Source: Lachnospiraceae bacterium
GTDB lineage: Bacteria > Bacillota > Clostridia > Lachnospirales > Lachnospiraceae
Reading direction: 5' to 3'
NCBI GenBank assembly: GCA_017521195.1
Contig: JAFXGP010000112.1
Coordinates: 1 to 42,111 of the forward strand
DNA: 42,111 bases
The position numbers and the translations under genes were made by a program. Below are positions 2,208 through 9,633 of this stretch, piece after piece; position 1 is the stretch's first letter, and each line of letters opens with the position of its first letter. The notes beneath the pieces are model-generated. The model was not told the DNA's origin. It saw only the letters and a program-made list of their open reading frames with translations, and ran no database searches.

Positions 2208-3473
2208 ATGTATCTAATTTCACTATTAAACGGATTTGTAGTAGCAGTTTTTGGTATGATTCTTTCTGCTTCTTTTTGTGATATTTGTTGGAACCGGAAA
2301 AAACAATTTGTCATGCTCGGGAGTATGGCAGGACTTTTGATGGTCCAGGGAATTATAGTTTATTTTATGGAGACAGAAATGGTAAGGTTTCTTTATCCGG
2401 TTATTACACATTTGCCGCTAATACTAATTCTTTTGGTTTTGACAAAAAAGAGATTATGGTCAGTGGTATCTGTTTTTACGGCATATCTTTGCTGTCAGGT
2501 AAGACGTTGGTTGGCGTTGTTTATAACGGCCATCTTAAGCGGCGATGCTATGATACAGGAAATGTCCGAATTGATAATAACAATACCGTTACTATTGTTG
2601 TTGCTAAAATACATTTCCCCGGCAGTACGTTCTATATCCTATAGTAATACTTGGGTACAGTCCCAGTTTTGTCTGATACCTGCAGTGTATTACATCTTTG
2701 ATTATGCTACATATATTTATACAGATTTAATGGCAAAAGGAACTCCTGTAGTAGCAGAATTTATGTCTTTTGTATGCAGTACAGCTTATTTGGTATTTGT
2801 GCTCCGTACATCGGAAGAAAAGTGGATGAGGAGTCAGTTAGAGCAGGCACAGGATAGTTTGAATCTTCAGATATCACAGGCGGTACGTGAAATAGGTGCT
2901 ATGCGGGAATCGCAGCAAAAAACAAAAGAATATCGCCATGATTTACGTCACCATATGCAATATCTGGTTGCCTGTATTGAAAATAATTGTTTAGAGCATG
3001 CCAAAGAATATATCCAAGGTATTTGTTCGGAAATAGAAGCAAGCAAGGTAATCACATTTTGTGAAAATGAAGCGGCAAATCTGATTTTTTCGGCTTTTGC
3101 AGAGAGAGCAAAAGGAAAGGGAGTGCTTCTGAAAGTAAAAGCACAGATTCCCAAACAGATACATATATCAGAAAGTGACTTGTGTGTACTTTTATCCAAT
3201 GCATTAGAAAATGCATTACATGCCTGTTGTAAGATAAAAGAAGATATGGAGACTTCTATTGAGGTATCTGCTTTTGAGAAAAATAAAAAATTATTTTTAC
3301 AAATTGTGAATTCCTGTGATTCTGATGTTTCTTTCGTGCAGGGAATCCCGGTTACTAACGAGCCGGACCATGGAATTGGAGTACGTAGTATATGTGCTTT
3401 GGTAGACAGATATAACGGTATATATACTTTTGAAATAGAAGAGGGAAGGTTTATACTTCGAGTATCCATATAA
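2208..3473 (+). CDS. AgrC/VirS-type GHKL sensor histidine kinase
   Basis: Membrane sensor kinase of the HPK10-like class that partners LytTR response regulators. The N-terminal half (about residues 1-200) is a run of roughly seven hydrophobic segments, followed by a probable coiled coil at about 205-240. The H-box is EYRHDLRHHMQ, with likely phospho-acceptor His244. The N-box is NALENALHAC (Asn331, Asn335) and the G-box is DHGIGVRSI (Gly389, Gly391), making an HATPase_c_5-type ATP-binding domain. Length (421 aa) is normal for AgrC-like kinases. Start is the ATG at 2208 after an AGAAGGGAAG site. The likely partner regulator is at 5776, separated by two genes, which is an unusual spread. No AgrB or AgrD peptide gene was found nearby, so the signal is unknown and may be an envelope state rather than an autoinducing peptide. 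Confidence 0.9.
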   Translation: MYLISLLNGFVVAVFGMILSASFCDICWNRKKQFVMLGSMAGLLMVQGIIVYFMETEMVRFLYPVITHLPLILILLVLTKKRLWSVVSVFTAYLCCQVRRWLALFITAILSGDAMIQEMSELIITIPLLLLLLKYISPAVRSISYSNTWVQSQFCLIPAVYYIFDYATYIYTDLMAKGTPVVAEFMSFVCSTAYLVFVLRTSEEKWMRSQLEQAQDSLNLQISQAVREIGAMRESQQKTKEYRHDLRHHMQYLVACIENNCLEHAKEYIQGICSEIEASKVITFCENEAANLIFSAFAERAKGKGVLLKVKAQIPKQIHISESDLCVLLSNALENALHACCKIKEDMETSIEVSAFEKNKKLFLQIVNSCDSDVSFVQGIPVTNEPDHGIGVRSICALVDRYNGIYTFEIEEGRFILRVSI

Positions 3474-3478
3474 AAATG

Positions 3479-3546
3479 CCGATTCGGACATGTAAAATAC
3501 CGATTCGGGAGAATAAACCCATTTTTTGAACTACTTATCGTATGAT
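3479..3546 (+). promoter_or_regulatory. LytTR-like direct-repeat operator and promoter of the zinc-ribbon/SHOCT gene
   Basis: The 9-mer CCGATTCGG occurs twice, at 3479-3487 and 3500-3508, each preceded by AAAAT plus a purine or pyrimidine: a 21-bp period with a 12-bp gap, the geometry known for AgrA and other LytTR sites. A -10 hexamer TATGAT lies at 3541-3546, starting 33 nt after the end of the proximal repeat, with no convincing -35. The same layout recurs at 4625-4692 and 6568-6635. Predicted start near 3554, which favours the ATG at 3606. Assignment to the regulator at 5776 is inference. Confidence 0.7.
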
Positions 3547-3605
3547 AAAGGTAACTGTTAATGAATCGAATGGTTACGGGATTCATATTTTTAAGGGGGA
3601 TAAAA

Positions 3606-4550
3606 ATGGGTTTATTTAGTAATAATAAAAAATCATGTCCGGTATGCGGAGAGCCAACACCAAGATTATTACCAACGAAAGTAGATAACATACCGATTTG
3701 TAAGGTGTGTGCAAGTAAAATAGAATTACCGGAAGGTATGGTAAATCAGATGTCTATAGAGGCATTTACAGAATATATTGCTTTTTATGACAATAATCAG
3801 CCTTTAAGGGATGTTTTTCAGGAAACCTTTACTTATAGTCAGGGATTTTTTAAGGCAGATATTGCAGTAGATATGGCAAACCGCTTGTTCCGTTTGAGAA
3901 ATGCAAAAGATGCATTGGTATTTGAAGCAGCTAATTTAAAGAGTTTCCGAATTTTAGAAGATAGTAAAGTACTTTATGAGAGTAGAGGAAATACTCTTAT
4001 CTGCAACGAAAGTGATGTGCCGGAAAAAATCAACGGGATGCACACTGTAGTAGAACAGTTTAGAGCCCGTCGTCAACAATATGAATTTATGGAAAGAATG
4101 CAGCGAAGAGAAGAAGCTGCAGCCAGACAACGGGGAGAAGATTATAATGGTCGATATATTTCCTGTCCGTTTTTTGAAGGAAACGAACCTTTTAACAATT
4201 TCTATATAGAATTAGATTTTGAACATCCATACTGGGAAAATTTTCACGGAGAAGTTAAGGGAACCAAATTTAGTTCCACCAATCCGGAAATAAGTACCTA
4301 TCTTTGTGAATATCAGAATGCAGTTGAAAAATTGCATGAATTAGCCATGAATCTGATGCAGATTATCAGTCCGGGAGCAACAGAAGTTTTTGGGGGTGAC
4401 AAGGCCGTATCTGCACCAACACAAGCAACCATGGTATCAACAGAAAGTAATGCAATCGAAGAAATTAAAAAGTATAAAGAATTATTAGATGCAGGTATTC
4501 TTACAGAGGAAGAATTTGCAGCAAAGAAAAGACAGTTGCTTGGATTATAG
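3606..4550 (+). CDS. Zinc-ribbon (DUF4428-like) and SHOCT-domain protein
   Basis: Predicted cytoplasmic protein of 314 aa, function unknown. Near the N-terminus is a four-cysteine zinc ribbon of the form CPVCGE...ICKVC, as in DUF4428-type proteins. The middle (about residues 60-270) carries a charged Arg/Glu-rich segment (RRQQYEFMERMQRREEAAAR). The last 30 residues are a typical SHOCT motif (EEIKKYKELLDAGILTEEEF), a short C-terminal helix pair usually linked to oligomerisation. I chose the ATG at 3606 because AAGGGGGATAAAA precedes it; an in-frame ATG at 3561 lies almost on the predicted transcription start and has no binding site. The gene is behind the LytTR-like operator, so it is probably induced by the flanking two-component system. 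Confidence 0.8.
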   Translation: MGLFSNNKKSCPVCGEPTPRLLPTKVDNIPICKVCASKIELPEGMVNQMSIEAFTEYIAFYDNNQPLRDVFQETFTYSQGFFKADIAVDMANRLFRLRNAKDALVFEAANLKSFRILEDSKVLYESRGNTLICNESDVPEKINGMHTVVEQFRARRQQYEFMERMQRREEAAARQRGEDYNGRYISCPFFEGNEPFNNFYIELDFEHPYWENFHGEVKGTKFSSTNPEISTYLCEYQNAVEKLHELAMNLMQIISPGATEVFGGDKAVSAPTQATMVSTESNAIEEIKKYKELLDAGILTEEEFAAKKRQLLGL

Positions 4551-4581
4551 TCAGAGTAGTTGGTTAAATAGATTTAAAAAA

Positions 4582-4611
4582 TTGCATGGTTGTATATTTT
4601 TAATGTATAAT
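4582..4611 (+). promoter_or_regulatory. Possible second (SigA-type) promoter of the lipoprotein gene
   Basis: TTGCAT (4582-4587), 18-bp spacer, TATAAT (4606-4611). It lies upstream of the LytTR-like operator, so the lipoprotein gene may have both a basal and an inducible promoter. Confidence 0.45.
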
Positions 4612-4624
4612 TTGTATTTTCAAA

Positions 4625-4692
4625 ACTTTTGGAGCAATAAAAGGTACGATTCGCACAAAAAATATTTTAATATTTAAAGAATTTGTTAAAAT
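4625..4692 (+). promoter_or_regulatory. LytTR-like operator and promoter of the lipoprotein gene
   Basis: The proximal half-site ACGATTCGC (4646-4654) is clear; the distal one, 21 bp upstream (4625-4633, ACTTTTGGA), is weak. Over the 30-bp operator this site agrees with the one at 6568-6597 at 21 positions by my count. A -10 hexamer TAAAAT (4687-4692) starts exactly 33 nt after the proximal half-site ends, as at the other two sites. Predicted start near 4700, giving a leader of about 60 nt. Confidence 0.6.
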
Positions 4693-4762
4693 GCGTACAT
4701 GGAATAAGGGTGCATTTTATGTGCTGTATTCCTAAAGAGTTATTGTAACAGGAGGAGAAAGA

Positions 4763-5584
4763 ATGAAAAAGAAATTATTAGCTCTTTTAATGGCTACAAC
4801 AATGTCTATGGCATTAATCGCTTGTGGCGGCGGTGAAGAAGAAGCTACAACAAATGAAGTTGCAACAGAAGAAGCAGTGGGAGAAGAAGCAGCCGAAGAA
4901 GTTGCAGAAGAAACAGCAGATGTTGAATACACAGAAGAACAGGCAGCATTTGTAGATGAATTCAATACTATGGTTGATGATTACAATACGGCAATTGACG
5001 TAATCAATGCGACACCGGAACTTGCAGAAAATCAGGAATTAGTAGATATCATGAATACACTTACAGATGCTATTAACGAAGTTTCTGAAATTTGCGAAGA
5101 TCCTTCTCTTTTAACAGAAGAAAACATGGAACTTTTAAGAACTACATCTTTTGTTGAAACATATAAGTTAATTGATCAGATCAATGCTTATACAGAAGGT
5201 GGAGATTCAGCTGATATGTCAGAAGAAAAAGCTTCCCTTAAAGCAGTTTTCACAACAGCATTAGCAGGTACAGATGATGCAGAAAATACATATTGGTTCT
5301 TATTTGATGATGAATTAACATTTGGTGCTTTTGTAATTTTATCTGCAGACCAGACACAGAGTGTTAACGTTGTAGGTGAAATTACATCCAGAGAAGATGG
5401 TGCTCTTGTAATTACAGATGAAACAACCTCTTCTTATATTGCTTTTACAACAGTAGAACAGACAGATGAATATCTTAAAGTTGCTGTAGAAGAGGGCAAT
5501 GAAGTAACATTAATTAATTATGATTTAGATGAAGCTATTGATGTAGTTGTTGCAATTGATGAAAATACAGAAATCATTGAATAA
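4763..5584 (+). CDS. Acidic secreted lipoprotein of unknown function
   Basis: 273 aa. The N-terminus is a textbook lipoprotein signal: KKK, a hydrophobic core, and lipobox ALIAC with the lipidated Cys at residue 21. It is followed by a very acidic Glu/Ala/Thr-rich linker (about residues 25-60) that would hold the domain off the membrane. The remainder is predicted soluble, with a helical first half (about 55-150) and a beta-rich second half containing many Asp/Glu and Thr residues. I recognise no named domain. Start is ATG 4763 after CAGGAGGAGAAAGA. The gene sits between kinase and regulator genes and has the shared operator, so the lipoprotein may be an output or a feedback ligand of the sensor; that is inference. 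Confidence 0.85.
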   Translation: MKKKLLALLMATTMSMALIACGGGEEEATTNEVATEEAVGEEAAEEVAEETADVEYTEEQAAFVDEFNTMVDDYNTAIDVINATPELAENQELVDIMNTLTDAINEVSEICEDPSLLTEENMELLRTTSFVETYKLIDQINAYTEGGDSADMSEEKASLKAVFTTALAGTDDAENTYWFLFDDELTFGAFVILSADQTQSVNVVGEITSREDGALVITDETTSSYIAFTTVEQTDEYLKVAVEEGNEVTLINYDLDEAIDVVVAIDENTEIIE

Positions 5585-5624
5585 TCTATAAATAATTTTA
5601 TAAATCAAAAATTGTATTTATAGA
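5585..5624. other. AT-rich inverted repeat after the lipoprotein gene
   Basis: TCTATAAATA (5585-5594) pairs perfectly with TATTTATAGA (5615-5624) across a 20-nt loop. It begins right after the stop codon, but no T-run follows, so it may be a weak terminator or mRNA end protection. Confidence 0.4.
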
Positions 5625-5635
5625 ATAGTTATAGG

Positions 5636-5725
5636 TTGAACAGTTATATTTGGAGTATAATATAAAAGATAGGAGCTTTTCTTGAGACATTTTATCCCGG
5701 TTAGGGAGTATGCCGGGAAAAGCTC
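5636..5725 (+). promoter_or_regulatory. Promoter and structured 5' leader of the response regulator gene
   Basis: A consensus TATAAT lies at 5656-5661. The upstream TTGAAC (5636-5641) is only 14 bp away, too close for an ordinary -35. Directly downstream, GAGCTTTT (5673-5680) pairs with AAAAGCTC (5718-5725), and inside it CCCGG (5696-5700) pairs with CCGGG (5713-5717), so the mRNA would begin with a two-part stem-loop at its 5' end. No T-run follows, so it is not an ordinary terminator; it may stabilise the mRNA or be a control element. An imperfect direct repeat AATAGTTATA / AACAGTTATA (5624 and 5639) lies upstream. Confidence 0.5.
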
Positions 5726-5775
5726 TTTAGGGTTATTGACCAATAATAAGGCACTTCATACGAGAGGTATGGAAA

Positions 5776-6516
5776 ATGAGAATAGCAGTTTGTGATGATA
5801 ATATAGATTTTTTACAGAGATTATCAACATTATTAAATATGTATAGTGAAGAAAATCATTGTATAGTAGAATATAAAACATTTACCAACCCATTGGAATT
5901 GGTAATGCAAATGGAAAAAGGTATTCATTATGATGTTATTTTACTGGATATATGTATGCCCGGAATGAATGGAATACAGTGTGCAAAAGATTTTCGAATG
6001 TACGATAACTTGGTAAAAATTGTTTTCCTGACCTCTTCTACAGAATATGCAGTGGAATCTTATAGTGTAAAAGCACATAATTATCTTTTAAAACCAATAC
6101 AAAAGGATAACCTGTTTTCTGTATTACGACAATTGAAGAAGGAAGAAGATATTACGGAAAAGAAGTTTTTTATCTTAAAATCCAAAACGGGAATTACAAA
6201 AATATTTTTGGAAAAATTAGAGTATTGTGAAGTGATTAATCGCAAGCTGGTACTTCATTTGAGCAATAATGAAGAGTATGAGTCTATTCTTCGTATGAAT
6301 GAGCTGGAAGAAAAGTTACAGGATTTTGGAATGTTTTTAAGACCCCATCGTTCGTTTCTGATAAATATGGATTATATTCAATTCTTAACAACTCACAGTA
6401 TTGTAATGGAAAGTGGAGTGAAAATTCCGGTACCAAGAGAGAAGTATGCGCAGATAAAGCAGATATATATGGAATATATATTTCAAGGAAAAAATTCGAT
6501 TGTGATAGGAAATTAA
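5776..6516 (+). CDS. LytTR-family response regulator (AgrA-like)
   Basis: 246 aa. The receiver domain (about residues 1-120) has the acidic pair Asp7/Asp8, phospho-acceptor Asp58 in DVILLDICMPGMNG, and Lys106 in LLKP. The LytTR DNA-binding domain (about 135-235) shows the typical FLRPHRSFLINMDYI block. It is the natural partner of the GHKL kinase at 2208 and the obvious candidate to bind the 21-bp-period operators upstream of three genes in the same island. Start ATG 5776 follows GAGAGGTATGGAAA, a modest ribosome binding site. Its own promoter lacks the CGATT repeats, so autoregulation through that motif is not evident. Its terminator lies at 6529-6562. Confidence 0.93.
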   Translation: MRIAVCDDNIDFLQRLSTLLNMYSEENHCIVEYKTFTNPLELVMQMEKGIHYDVILLDICMPGMNGIQCAKDFRMYDNLVKIVFLTSSTEYAVESYSVKAHNYLLKPIQKDNLFSVLRQLKKEEDITEKKFFILKSKTGITKIFLEKLEYCEVINRKLVLHLSNNEEYESILRMNELEEKLQDFGMFLRPHRSFLINMDYIQFLTTHSIVMESGVKIPVPREKYAQIKQIYMEYIFQGKNSIVIGN

Positions 6517-6528
6517 ATATTGTTAAAG

Positions 6529-6562
6529 AAAGAGGCGGTGGAAATTCTATCGCCTCTTTTTA
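6529..6562 (+). terminator. Rho-independent terminator of the response regulator gene
   Basis: AAAGAGGCGGT (6529-6539) pairs with ATCGCCTCTTT (6549-6559) with one G-T wobble, followed by T residues. It ends just before the operator of the next gene. Confidence 0.85.
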
Positions 6563-6567
6563 TACCT

Positions 6568-6635
6568 TCTTTTCGAACAAGTAAAATAACGATTGGCGCA
6601 CAAAGTGTGTTTTCAATGAAAAAGAGTGTTATTAT
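6568..6635 (+). promoter_or_regulatory. LytTR-like operator and promoter of the secreted-protein gene
   Basis: Proximal half-site ACGATTGGC (6589-6597) and distal half-site TCTTTTCGA (6568-6576) have a 21-bp period. Over 30 bp it matches the operator at 3479-3508 at 22 positions by my count, including the shared core GTAAAATA followed by CGATT. The -10 hexamer TATTAT (6630-6635) again starts 33 nt after the proximal half-site. This places the start near 6643 and rules out a coding start upstream of that. Confidence 0.68.
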
Positions 6636-6703: not shown

Positions 6704-7735
6704 ATGAAATTATTGAAAAATGCAAGGAGAGTATTAGGGGCGGTATTATCGCTTGCAATGACGCTAACCTTGTTTATGTGGAATGGGGTAGAGGCTGAAG
6801 CGCGAATTGTAGAGCAGGTTGTAGTTAGCGGAGTACAGAAATATGGTAGTGGTTTTTTGAAGAGTTTTCAGTTGGATTATTACGTGGGTAACCCGGTATC
6901 AGGAGCACCTTCTGGAACGGCAAATTCAAGGATAGCAGTTCAAACTCAACAATTTACGGATGATGATTACACAGACGTGGGAGATTATGCAGGTGATCAT
7001 AATTATGCAGACTGGCCGGATTCTCCTGCGGATTGTGGATTTGTGGCATGGGGGAAGGTGGAAGATGATTATACTTTTACAAGACCTGCGAGCGGAAATA
7101 ATCATAGAATAACAGTTACATTTGAAGATAGTGCAGTTAGTTTGAATACAACACAGACTTATTATGTGTATATATGGACAAATTATGGTAGTGAAACTTA
7201 TCCGGATGCTTATGTATATGAATTCACAGCAGGACAAGGTGATTTTACCGGGACTACAACACAACCTAACCCAAATCCTGGCGGTGATGTAGTTTCACAG
7301 CCTGATAATAATAACCAAAATACTAGTCAAAATGGCCATTCACATAATTATCAGTGGGCTGTAATCAAGGAGGCTACTGATAAGACAGATGGATGTACTG
7401 CATTAATGTGTGAAGGGTGTGGACAGATAGAAGCAACACAACCAATTTCTTTTTTCAACAACATTATTTATAATGTTAGAGAAGAAATTAAAAATGCACC
7501 GGAAAACGGAATTGTTACGATTGATAACGGATTTCTTCGTTGTTTCAGCGATGAAATGGTAGAAGAACTTCTTGCTCGTCCTGATGTAACAGTAGTTGTT
7601 AACTTTACTGATAAGGATGTAAATTACAGCTTTACAATTCCAGCCGGTAAAGCTCCAACAGATGGGCAGGAATGGTATGGATATTATTATTTAGGTTCTG
7701 TTTATGGTTGGACATTAGTTGAAGATACAATATAA
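6704..7735 (+). CDS. Secreted protein with a Cys/His motif, unknown function
   Basis: 343 aa. The N-terminus is a Sec signal peptide (KLLKNARR, then a hydrophobic core ending near EAEA). The mature part has a Tyr/Asp/Thr-rich, beta-type domain (about residues 35-190), a Pro/Asn/Gly linker (about 190-215), a small motif HSHNYQW...CTALMCEGCG typical of Clostridia surface proteins (probably a zinc knuckle), and a C-terminal domain of about 100 residues. No LPXTG or membrane anchor is visible, so it is released or held non-covalently. I chose ATG 6704 because CAAGGAGGAATTTGGT precedes it and the predicted transcription start (about 6643) excludes the in-frame ATG at 6626. Likely an output of the two-component island. 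Confidence 0.8.
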   Translation: MKLLKNARRVLGAVLSLAMTLTLFMWNGVEAEARIVEQVVVSGVQKYGSGFLKSFQLDYYVGNPVSGAPSGTANSRIAVQTQQFTDDDYTDVGDYAGDHNYADWPDSPADCGFVAWGKVEDDYTFTRPASGNNHRITVTFEDSAVSLNTTQTYYVYIWTNYGSETYPDAYVYEFTAGQGDFTGTTTQPNPNPGGDVVSQPDNNNQNTSQNGHSHNYQWAVIKEATDKTDGCTALMCEGCGQIEATQPISFFNNIIYNVREEIKNAPENGIVTIDNGFLRCFSDEMVEELLARPDVTVVVNFTDKDVNYSFTIPAGKAPTDGQEWYGYYYLGSVYGWTLVEDTI

Positions 7736-7840: not shown

Positions 7841-8530
7841 TTAAGCCATATTATCTTCGATAAAAGGTCGGATGACAATATCGTGTACACAACCTTCTTC
7901 GTTTTCGATGCAAGCTTTAATCATTTTAGCAACCGTTTCCGGTTTTAGGTAATTAGGATTTGCATTTGCTCTGAAGTTAGTATCGGTGCCACCGGGGTAC
8001 ACATTACAAACACCTATATGATCTGGTTTAACTTCTTTTAAGAGAATCTTGCTGATGCCTTCCATGGCATCTTTGGCAGCAGAGTAACTTCCTGCCATAG
8101 GATTGTTGAATAGACAACAAGTACTTAAAATGTTAACAAACAATCCTTGCTTCTTTTCTGCCATAAGAGGATAAATTTCCTGAATCATGCCCACCGCACT
8201 GACACAGTTTAATTCAAACATATATCTTAAATCATCTAAATTGATATCTACAACTTTATCTTTTTTCGTATTGGCTCCGGCATTGTTTACTAACACATCT
8301 ATGGTACCAAATTTTTCTTTTACATTTTCACAGAAAATGTGTCGTTTTTTATCATCTGTAATATCAAAACATTCGGAATATACATCACAATCATGAAGCT
8401 GCATCATCAAATCTTTCATTTTTTCTTCACTTCTTCCGCAAAGGGCAAGATTATATTCTTTTGATAAAAGAAGTGATAATGCTTTTCCAATCCCATCGGT
8501 TGCACCGGTAATAAGTACAGTTTTTTTCAT
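7841..8530 (-). CDS. Short-chain dehydrogenase/reductase (SDR)
   Basis: 229 aa, classical SDR. The nucleotide-binding motif TGATDGIG is near residue 8, NNAG near 85, the serine region NILSTCC near 137, and the catalytic YSAAK near 152, followed by the PGG motif. The substrate is not predictable; the first beta strand is followed by LCGRSEEK, a pattern often associated with NADP(H) preference. The start is the ATG complementary to 8528-8530, preceded by AAGAGGTATACAAAA; upstream in-frame codons do not look coding. It is divergent from the nuclease-like gene and has its own promoter. Confidence 0.88.
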   Translation of the reverse strand: MKKTVLITGATDGIGKALSLLLSKEYNLALCGRSEEKMKDLMMQLHDCDVYSECFDITDDKKRHIFCENVKEKFGTIDVLVNNAGANTKKDKVVDINLDDLRYMFELNCVSAVGMIQEIYPLMAEKKQGLFVNILSTCCLFNNPMAGSYSAAKDAMEGISKILLKEVKPDHIGVCNVYPGGTDTNFRANANPNYLKPETVAKMIKACIENEEGCVHDIVIRPFIEDNMA

Positions 8531-8790: not shown

Positions 8791-9633
8791 ATGACAAACA
8801 AACTGAAAGAACATTTTCCTATGATCCGAGATCGGGAAGAATCTGCGTTACTTGTAACTGATATCATAGTAGAATTGGAAGATGGAACTATTGCAAATGT
8901 AGAGGTACAAAAAGTAGGATATCATTTTCCGGGACAACGCAGTGCCTGTTATAGTGCAGATATGCTTTTACGACAATATAAACGTGTTCGAAATCAACAG
9001 AAAGATAAATTTTCTTATTATCAGATTAAAAGTGTATTTCTGATTGTCCTTTATGAATCCAGTCCCAAAGAATTAAAGGCGTTTCCACAGAGATACATCC
9101 ATCGCTCAAAGCAAATATTTGATAGCGGTTTACAGTTAGAATTATTACAGGAATACGTAATGATTTCCCTTGACATATTTCATATGACCATGCAAAATAA
9201 AAATATAGAAACGAAGCTGGAAGCATGGTTAACATTTTTAGCATGTGATTATCCGGAAAAAATTATTGAATTAATAATTAAGTTTCCGGAATTTAAGCCG
9301 ATGTATGAGACACTCTATCGTATGTGTCGGAATGTGGAGGGAGTTATGGGATTTTTTTCTGAAGAACTTAGAATTATGGACAAGAATTTAGTAGAATATA
9401 TGGTAGAAGAGCAACAAAAGGAAATTGAGGAAAATGAACGGATTATAAAAGAAATGAAAGAAGAAGCCGAAAGTATTAGGAAAGAAGTCGAAGCAAGTAA
9501 GAAAGAAGCCGAAGCGAGTAAGAAAGAAGCCGAAGCGAGTAAGAAAGAAGCTGAGGAAAGTAAAAAAATTATTAAAGAAAAGGATGAGCAAATCAGGAAA
9601 TTGGTGAAAGAGATAGAAGGATTTAAGAAATAA
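8791..9633 (+). CDS. PD-(D/E)XK (Rpn/transposase-like) family protein, apparently internally deleted
   Basis: 280 aa. The block LVTDIIVELEDGTIANVEVQK, with the QR..CYSADMLLRQYKRVR stretch after it, is characteristic of the PD-(D/E)XK nuclease family transposase/Rpn-like proteins that are multicopy in Lachnospiraceae. From memory of that family, MTNKLKEHFPMIRDREE is the usual N-terminus and is normally followed by about 90 residues (an EEFLDFCTG...LYD region) before the catalytic block. Here the two are joined directly at REES-ALLVTD, suggesting an in-frame deletion. The acidic core residues are kept. The C-terminal third is a coiled coil with a perfect heptad repeat (about residues 230-260). 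Start ATG 8791 is preceded by GAAAGGA; an upstream TTG at 8782 is possible. Activity is doubtful. Confidence 0.75.
   Translation: MTNKLKEHFPMIRDREESALLVTDIIVELEDGTIANVEVQKVGYHFPGQRSACYSADMLLRQYKRVRNQQKDKFSYYQIKSVFLIVLYESSPKELKAFPQRYIHRSKQIFDSGLQLELLQEYVMISLDIFHMTMQNKNIETKLEAWLTFLACDYPEKIIELIIKFPEFKPMYETLYRMCRNVEGVMGFFSEELRIMDKNLVEYMVEEQQKEIEENERIIKEMKEEAESIRKEVEASKKEAEASKKEAEASKKEAEESKKIIKEKDEQIRKLVKEIEGFKK
9484..9567 (+). repeat. Four 21-bp tandem repeats inside the nuclease-like gene
   Basis: Four in-tandem units starting at 9484, 9505, 9526 and 9547; each encodes the heptad EAEASKK or a close variant (EVEASKK, EAEESKK). The middle units are nearly identical in DNA, so copy number could change by slippage without shifting frame, altering coiled-coil length. 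Confidence 0.9.

What the first reader, a model, noticed from the sequence alone, without database searches (positions are those of the whole stretch)
3479..6635. A three-promoter regulon with one operator geometry inside a two-component island
Directly visible: CCGATTCGG repeats at 3479 and 3500 (21-bp period, 12-bp gap); related sites at 4625/4646 and 6568/6589 with the same period. By my count the 30-bp sites match 22/30 (3479 versus 6568) and 21/30 (4625 versus 6568). At all three, a -10 hexamer (TATGAT, TAAAAT, TATTAT) starts exactly 33 nt after the proximal half-site ends, with no good -35. Established: LytTR regulators such as AgrA bind direct repeats with a 12-bp gap and activate promoters with poor -35 elements. 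Inference: the LytTR regulator at 5776 activates the zinc-ribbon/SHOCT protein, the lipoprotein and the secreted protein. The half-site differs from the AgrA motif ACAGTTAAG, so this may be a new specificity.
Basis: partly seen in the sequence, partly recalled or inferred. Interest (0 to 1): 0.88.

Follow-up and report, generated by a model that had tools for sequence, protein, structure and literature searches.

The report
Two-component regulator with conserved operator sites
Three gene promoters in this bacterium share a paired DNA signature that also stands beside the same regulator in relatives, so a two-component system most likely switches on a small set of envelope-type genes; the promoter layout is the usual one for this regulator family, but the DNA word and the gene set look undescribed.

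Summary
In detail: three 9-12-9 direct repeats (3479, 4625, 6568), each exactly 32 nt before a -10-like hexamer with no good -35. It is not chance. A half-site matrix from the window alone, scanned over 60 upstream regions of 7 orthologous loci, gives 11 regions over the threshold, 10 with a -10 at 32 nt; 0 of 400 column-shuffled matrices reach 10. Conversely, half-site and -10 columns learned from five other genera rank the window sites 1, 2, 3 of 84,088 positions, the third narrowly. Of 397 family genomes, 7 carry the kinase orthologue and all 7 have a site at E <= 0.001, against one weak hit in the other 390 (partly circular). Likely mechanism: a GHKL kinase (2208-3473) phosphorylates the LytTR regulator (5776-6516), which activates the SHOCT/zinc-ribbon, lipoprotein and secreted-protein promoters. 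In four of six other genera the pair sits near LemA and SHOCT genes, suggesting an envelope module (inference). The geometry is already published for LytTR regulators (PMC6193735, passages); the half-site (about TCGATTCR) and target set appear new. A new member of a known kind; binding and activation untested.

The parts
2208..3473 (+). Sensor histidine kinase, membrane-bound, GHKL ATPase domain (cognate kinase, inferred)
   Evidence: Pfam HATPase_c_5 E 1.9e-18; motif YRHDLRHH with H244, hydrophobic N-terminal segments; orthologues adjacent to the regulator orthologue in L039 and L061-L065
3479..3508 (+). Operator 1: CCGATTCGG-N12-CCGATTCGG
3518..3527 (+). CCCATTTTTT at the place of the -35; similar stretches at the same position in several relatives, not in operators 2 and 3
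   Evidence: alignment A1 and information content
3541..3546 (+). -10-like TATGAT, 32 nt after operator 1
3606..4550 (+). Zinc-ribbon (DUF4428-like) / SHOCT protein, 314 aa
   Evidence: Pfam SHOCT E 1e-8; DUF4428 E 3.2e-4, below its cut-off
4625..4654 (+). Operator 2: ACTTTTGGA-N12-ACGATTCGC
   Evidence: counterpart at L038 9287 before the orthologous lipoprotein gene
4687..4692 (+). -10-like TAAAAT, 32 nt after operator 2
4763..5584 (+). Lipoprotein, 273 aa
   Evidence: N-terminus MKKKLLALLMATTMSMALIACGG read from the sequence; profile match to lipoproteins downstream of such sites in G028 and G369
5776..6516 (+). LytTR response regulator, 246 aa
   Evidence: Pfam Response_reg E 2.1e-18 and LytTR E 1.1e-16; D7/D8, D58, K106
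6568..6597 (+). Operator 3: TCTTTTCGA-N12-ACGATTGGC
6630..6635 (+). -10-like TATTAT, 32 nt after operator 3
6704..7735 (+). Secreted protein of unknown family, 343 aa
   Evidence: no Pfam family passes its cut-off and no NCBIfam family matches at E 0.01; signal-like N-terminus read from the sequence

Best explanation
This is a two-component regulon. The membrane kinase at 2208-3473 senses an unknown signal, probably at the cell envelope, and phosphorylates D58 of the LytTR regulator at 5776-6516. The regulator then binds as a pair to a direct repeat with half-site about TCGATTCR, spaced 21 nt. From that fixed place, 32 nt before the -10, it helps RNA polymerase start at promoters that lack a working -35. 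Its targets in the window are the SHOCT/zinc-ribbon gene, the lipoprotein gene and the secreted-protein gene. Shown here: the repeats, the fixed distance, their conservation near orthologous kinase/regulator pairs, and the lack of strong sites in nearly all genomes without the kinase. Inferred: kinase-regulator pairing, binding, activation rather than repression, and the envelope role.
For: Window-only matrix finds sites with the same distance in loci of the orthologous pair: 11 of 60 regions score 8 or more, 10 of the 11 with TANNNT at exactly 32; 0 of 400 permuted matrices reach 10. Half-site and -10 columns learned from five other genera rank the window sites 1-3 of 84,088, the third narrowly. 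Kinase orthologue in 7 of 397 family genomes, all 7 among the 8 with a site at E <= 0.001. Sites not used to build the model occur in 4 of those 7 genomes against 1 of 390 (Fisher 1.7e-7). Some out-of-locus sites precede relatives of the same targets: a paralogous lipoprotein (G369:C22, E 1.2e-7) and a DUF4428-like zinc-ribbon protein (G344:C55, E 0.0039). Genus mates without the pair (G001, G002, G003, G005, G006) have no site better than E 0.051. Kinase and regulator genes are neighbours in L039 and L061-L065. Receiver residues and kinase histidine are present. Operator geometry equals that tabulated for LytTR promoters (PMC6193735, passages).
Against: No binding or expression data. Model R1 was built partly from 6 of the 7 positive genomes, so those in-locus hits are circular. 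The threshold of 8 was set. Two of the seven orthologous loci have no region of 8 or more beside the pair: L061 (G238) reaches 5.7 and 5.6, and in L062 (G086) the region between kinase and next gene scores -3.7, its one high region being before a chemotaxis-receptor gene about 8 kb away. G209 has a 43% regulator with no kinase relative in its 18 kb locus and no region above 5.8. One G028 site has its -10 at 31 or 33, not 32, and one of the 11 hits (L039 8804-) is the opposite strand of that site. The regulator gene itself has no site in the window (best score 3.0, p 0.12), although regulator genes in G028, G238 and, with weaker repeats, G344 have candidates. In G005 a SHOCT orthologue (71%) stands without pair or site; that fits, but the genome may be incomplete. 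In G004 the all-column matrix ranks 8165 first but 9287 is not among the five places printed.
Confidence: 0.85

Rival explanations
1. Another LytTR regulator of the same genome (six LytTR matches in all) acts at these sites, and the neighbour at 5776 does not.
For: The genome has five other LytTR matches, one 39% identical with a kinase relative beside it (L041).
Against: Sites follow the orthologue, not the paralogues: G005 has paralogues (34% regulator, 29% kinase) and no site better than E 0.051. Eleven loci of distant relatives give no comparable set in 111 upstream regions; two regions exceed 8, both in L043 (10.1 and 9.2).
Confidence: 0.07
2. Each CCGATTCGG is a near-palindrome bound by an unrelated helix-turn-helix dimer, possibly a repressor; the 21-nt spacing is just two helical turns.
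For: CCGA-T-TCGG is symmetrical about its centre (sequence).
Against: In relatives the symmetry is lost (TCGATTCAT, ACGATTCAG) while the direct-repeat register, 12-nt gap and 32-nt distance stay. A set place before a -10 without -35 is the layout of activators. Whether the loci share a helix-turn-helix gene was not tested.
Confidence: 0.04
3. The regulator binds here but represses, or the sites are promoters of an alternative sigma factor with a -35 of the type CCNTTTT.
For: A CCCATTTTT-like stretch recurs at the -35 position in several sites.
Against: It is absent at window 4625 and 6568 and in other sites with the same repeats, so it is not obligatory. LytTR regulators with repeats of this kind are activators in tested cases (PMC6193735, PMC2766830, passages).
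Confidence: 0.04

Closest known systems
LytTR response regulators of two-component systems (ComE, SilA, AgrA)
   Same: Receiver plus LytTR domain; among the 60 best solved chains shown, ComE 4cbv is the only one matched over both domains (residues 1-231, E 1.6e-9); GHKL kinase; direct repeats of 9 with a 12-nt gap
   Different: Half-site about TCGATTCR instead of the AgrA/ComE words (recalled) or the ACCACTTAT type of PMC6193735 (passages); no AgrB found in this assembly; targets look like envelope proteins
LytTR Regulatory Systems (LRS; HdrRM, BrsRM; PMC6193735)
   Same: Same operator layout: mostly 9-12-9, about 10 nt to the -35 and often 16-17 nt more to the -10, i.e. 32-33 nt; the paper says repeat sequence varies while length, spacing and place are kept (passages)
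   Different: LRS regulators have no receiver phospho-acceptor and pair with an inhibitor membrane protein, not a kinase (passages); this one has both receiver and kinase
PSP / Lia-type envelope stress modules (PMC11237479, passages)
   Same: SHOCT, zinc-ribbon, Band-7 and TPM partners, membrane association; LytTR linked to some Toastrack operons
   Different: No PspA found in this assembly; LemA, TM2 and DUF2207 occur 0 times in that paper's main text

Membership tests
LytTR two-component response regulator | Receiver and LytTR domains in one protein with phospho-acceptor residues | tested here: met
LytTR two-component response regulator | Cognate GHKL kinase gene linked | tested here: met
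   (adjacent in L039 and L061-L065; 2.3 kb apart in the window)
LytTR two-component response regulator | Operator of two 9-nt direct repeats, 11-13 nt apart, just upstream of the promoter | tested here: met
LytTR two-component response regulator | Regulator binds the operator and activates | not testable with these tools
   needs footprint, mobility shift, reporter
Agr-type peptide quorum sensing | AgrB peptide processor | tested here: inconclusive
   no AgrB in the assembly, which is 82% complete; the control search was over its cut-off in none of 14 genomes, so the test had no positive control
Agr-type peptide quorum sensing | Autoinducer peptide as signal | not tested
   no search for small peptide genes was made
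LytTR Regulatory System (LRS) | Regulator without receiver domain, paired with inhibitor membrane protein | tested here: not met
   receiver domain and kinase present
PSP envelope stress system | PspA/IM30 protein | tested here: not met
   no PF04012 match in the assembly, 82% complete (control over cut-off in 9 of 14 genomes)

The most novel reading that the evidence does not exclude
A widespread, undescribed envelope-maintenance regulon: a GHKL/LytTR pair that controls LemA, SHOCT/zinc-ribbon, TM2, DUF2207 and lipoprotein genes through a 9-12-9 operator whose half-site word drifts (about TCGATTCR here; ATGTTTCAT before LemA in G194; ATGATTCAT/ATGTTTCAT in G037 and, weaker, ATGATTCGT/GTGTTTCAT in G157) while its layout stays nearly fixed.
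Probability: 0.4. Interest if true: 0.6.

Novelty: new member of a known kind. Interest (0 to 1): 0.45.

Why it matters
LytTR regulators are common, yet few have known operators outside peptide-signalling and virulence systems (recalled). Here the operator, the promoter layout, the regulator, the likely kinase and the target set can be read from sequence, and in-locus sites agree across seven genomes of six genera, so the regulon is ready for a direct test. It also ties LemA, SHOCT and DUF2207 proteins, whose roles are poorly known, to one signalling system, and gives a natural series for asking how a LytTR domain and its half-site change together while the geometry stays fixed.

Tried and rejected
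Six genome-contig loci from the regulator protein (L032-L037) were distant (21-38% in the best segment) and were left out of the tests. Scans of L040 and the other distant loci with the window half-site gave no comparable set. A repeat-first look at 17 upstream regions then showed 9-12-9 repeats before LemA in L040, L067 and L068 (8, 9 and 6 of 9 matching). Such a hit at 6 of 9 or better turns up in 13% of shuffled regions, so the L068 case alone proves nothing; the hexamer in L040 and L067 is TAGATT, a poor -10.

A 21-nt period also occurs inside ORF 8791-9633 (sites at 9517 and 9538, minus strand). It comes from a repeated peptide, not an operator. The palindrome reading of CCGATTCGG was rejected because relatives lose the symmetry. 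The CsrC match at 6522-6561 (23.6 bits against a gathering score of 61) overlaps the terminator-like hairpin at 6537-6554 and is taken as that.

Gene calls for relatives are a simple ORF heuristic. L038 8405 there is a misplaced start of the SHOCT gene at 8285, and a false small ORF (4516-4677) cut window operator 2 out of the training-set listing (score -11.5 for that clipped region).

Papers. Searches pairing LytTR with LemA (8 papers), Lachnospiraceae (11), SHOCT (1), DUF2207 (0), and with CGATTC (2) gave no title or abstract on this system. One search (LytTR, direct repeat, 12 bp, promoter: 3 papers) gave the geometry papers. Searches added only PMC11237479. I read passages of PMC6193735, PMC2766830, PMC11237479 and PMC5320581; the other papers were seen only in listings, and subscription journals are mostly not held.
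Full report
OBSERVATION. One search confirms the coordinates. The three repeats are 9-12-9 with a 21-nt period, and in each the -10-like hexamer begins 33 nt after the last base of the proximal half-site (32 nt between). The distal half-sites at 4625 and 6568 (ACTTTTGGA, TCTTTTCGA) differ clearly from CCGATTCGG. Matches to TTGACA at 16-18 nt spacing are at best 1, 3 and 2 of 6. The distances from the -10 end to the start codons are 59, 70 and 68 nt, with purine-rich ribosome-binding-like stretches before all three starts.

GENES. Pfam gives a GHKL kinase (HATPase_c_5) at 2208-3473, SHOCT with a sub-threshold DUF4428 zinc ribbon at 3606-4550, and Response_reg plus LytTR at 5776-6516. The lipoprotein 4763-5584 and secreted protein 6704-7735 match no family above its cut-off. 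The receiver has D7, D8, D58 and K106; the kinase has H244 in YRHDLRHH (roles assigned from knowledge of the families). ComE, 4cbv, is the only one of the 60 solved chains shown that is matched over both domains.

RELATIVES. The regulator is 69% identical in genus mate G004, and 43-46% in G028, G238, G086, G204, G369 and G344, each of another genus in the family. The kinase is 75-76% identical in G004 and 43-63% in the six others. In all six the regulator and kinase genes are neighbours, which supports their pairing; in the window and in G004 the SHOCT and lipoprotein genes sit between them. Near the pair lie LemA and SHOCT relatives in four of the six (L039, L061, L063, L064), a DUF2207 relative in L061, a TM2 protein in L063, a C11 peptidase in L039 with relatives in L063 and L065, a Band-7 protein in L065, and lipoproteins. 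L062 (G086) has none of LemA, SHOCT or DUF2207 by tblastn. Three farther loci with another half-site word, L040 (G037, another family of the same order), L067 and L068 (other genera of the family), also have LemA beside the regulator.

TEST 1. A half-site matrix was built from the six half-sites of the window only. In 60 upstream regions of seven orthologous loci (L038, L039, L061-L065) 11 regions score 8 or more (the threshold was set). TANNNT stands at gap 32 in 10 of the 11; the highest count at any other gap from 0 to 60 is 3. Changing the half-site spacer to any other value from 6 to 19 gives 0-7 regions, at most 2 with the -10 at 32. Of 400 matrices with permuted columns none reached 10 (mean 0.09, highest 5). 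One of the 11 is the opposite strand of another, so the independent count is 9 of 10; the exception, before the G028 regulator, has TANNNT at 31 and 33. The 11 regions lie in five of the seven loci beside the pair, plus one in L062 before a chemotaxis-receptor gene about 8 kb from the pair; L061 has no region over 8 (5.7 and 5.6). The 111 regions of eleven distant loci gave two scores above 8, both in L043.

TEST 2. A matrix from seven sites of five other genera, restricted to half-sites and -10, ranks the window sites 1 (3479, 27.6), 2 (6568, 13.0) and 3 (4625, 10.3) of 84,088 positions; the fourth position scores 10.0. With all 68 columns, spacers included, they rank 1, 7 and 35. On L038 the all-column matrix ranks 8165 first; 9287 is not among the five places printed.

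TEST 3. A sequence-only profile R1 was built from 12 sites, 68 columns, without gaps; these sites had been picked partly for their -10. In the own genome the three window sites score E 1e-7 to 4e-7 and the next place 0.0045, with no gene found downstream by my start filter. Among 13 chosen genomes, all seven relatives with the pair have a hit at E 7.5e-5 or better (in G086 away from the pair); the five genus mates without it have none better than 0.051, and G037 none better than 0.4. In 397 family genomes, 8 have a hit at E <= 0.001 and 7 have the kinase at E <= 1e-80; the 7 are among the 8. The eighth, G161, has one hit at 1.5e-4 with no gene found by my start filter. R1 contains sites from six of the seven positive genomes, so I also counted only genomes with sites not used in R1: 4 of 7 (G369:C22, G204:C36, G086:C38, G028:C35:35896) against 1 of 390, Fisher 1.7e-7. 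One search used stricter filters, which lose weak matches.

OUT-OF-LOCUS SITES. One search lists ten hits with E below 0.05 away from the loci. Four precede genes akin to the targets or the regulator: G369:C22, about 48 nt before a paralogue of the lipoprotein gene that follows the kinase in G369; G344:C55, before a zinc-ribbon protein (DUF4428, just under its cut-off); G238:C55 (E 0.02, distal half poor), before a secreted-type protein with an Ig-like domain; and G086:C2 (E 0.0035, distal half poor), before another LytTR regulator. The other six do not help: G204:C36 (no gene within 400 nt by my filter), G086:C38 (a 362-aa protein without Pfam family), G004:C15, G344:C43 and G238:C30 (no fitting gene), and G028:C75 (not looked at). 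The G028 and G369 lipoproteins match the window/G004 lipoproteins in a profile comparison over the first 150 residues (probability 97%, E 1.6e-11); part of this is the shared signal peptide.

SITE ANATOMY. Across 20 sites (12 of the model and 8 others) the strongly kept positions are C-G-A-T-T in both halves, C at position 7 of the proximal half, G-C just after the proximal half, and TA...T of the -10, which was partly a selection criterion. The kept G after the half-site recalls the tenth position found to matter for SilA (PMC2766830, passages). A T-rich stretch, often CCCATTTTT, sits where the -35 would be in many but not all sites; operators 2 and 3 of the window lack the CC part.

KNOWN OR NEW. 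PMC6193735 (passages) tabulates LytTR repeats, mostly 9-12-9, mostly 10 nt before a -35 and often 16-17 nt more to the -10, which is 32-33 nt, and says that repeat sequence varies while length, spacing and place are kept. The geometry of this finding is therefore the family's usual one. The half-site and target set did not show in the listings. PMC11237479 (passages) describes SHOCT, zinc-ribbon and Band-7 proteins as partners of membrane stress systems, which is the ground for my envelope reading; this 82% complete assembly shows no PspA and no AgrB (without a working positive control).

POINTS AGAINST. The regulator gene of the window lacks a site; a strong hairpin at 5671-5727 (z -4) lies between the lipoprotein gene and the regulator, so the regulator may or may not be transcribed from operator 2. 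G086 lacks a site between kinase and next gene (score -3.7), G209 has a regulator at 43% without kinase or site, and the LemA upstream regions of G238 and G369 show no repeat. G005 keeps a SHOCT orthologue without pair or site. No experiment stands behind binding, direction of effect or signal.

VERDICT. It is a new member of a known kind: a LytTR two-component regulon with its own operator word and what looks like an envelope-type target set.

Noticed in passing
window 5671-5727: Strong hairpin (GAGCTTTTC pairs with GAAAAGCTC; -29 kcal/mol, z -4) between the lipoprotein and regulator genes; terminator, processing site or RNA element unknown.
   Followed up: partly
window about 9440-9540: 21-nt coding repeat (peptide EASKKEA) in ORF 8791-9633 mimics the operator period by chance.
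   Followed up: partly
L040 10206, L067 LemA upstream region, L068 9360: LemA upstream regions in three farther relatives carry 9-12-9 repeats of another word (ATGTTTCAT-like; 8, 9 and 6 of 9 matching) with a TA...T hexamer at 31-32 nt.
   Followed up: partly
L062 4155: A site of this type, hexamer at 32 nt, stands before a dCache chemotaxis-receptor gene near a second LytTR regulator in G086.
   Followed up: no
L061 9687 (minus strand): The G238 regulator gene has its own perfect repeat ACATTTCAG-N12-ACATTTCAG with TATGAT at 32 nt: possible autoregulation with a different half-site word.
   Followed up: no
L071 (G005): A SHOCT orthologue (71%) without kinase, regulator or site; a possible case of a target outliving its regulator, or an incomplete genome.
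   Followed up: partly
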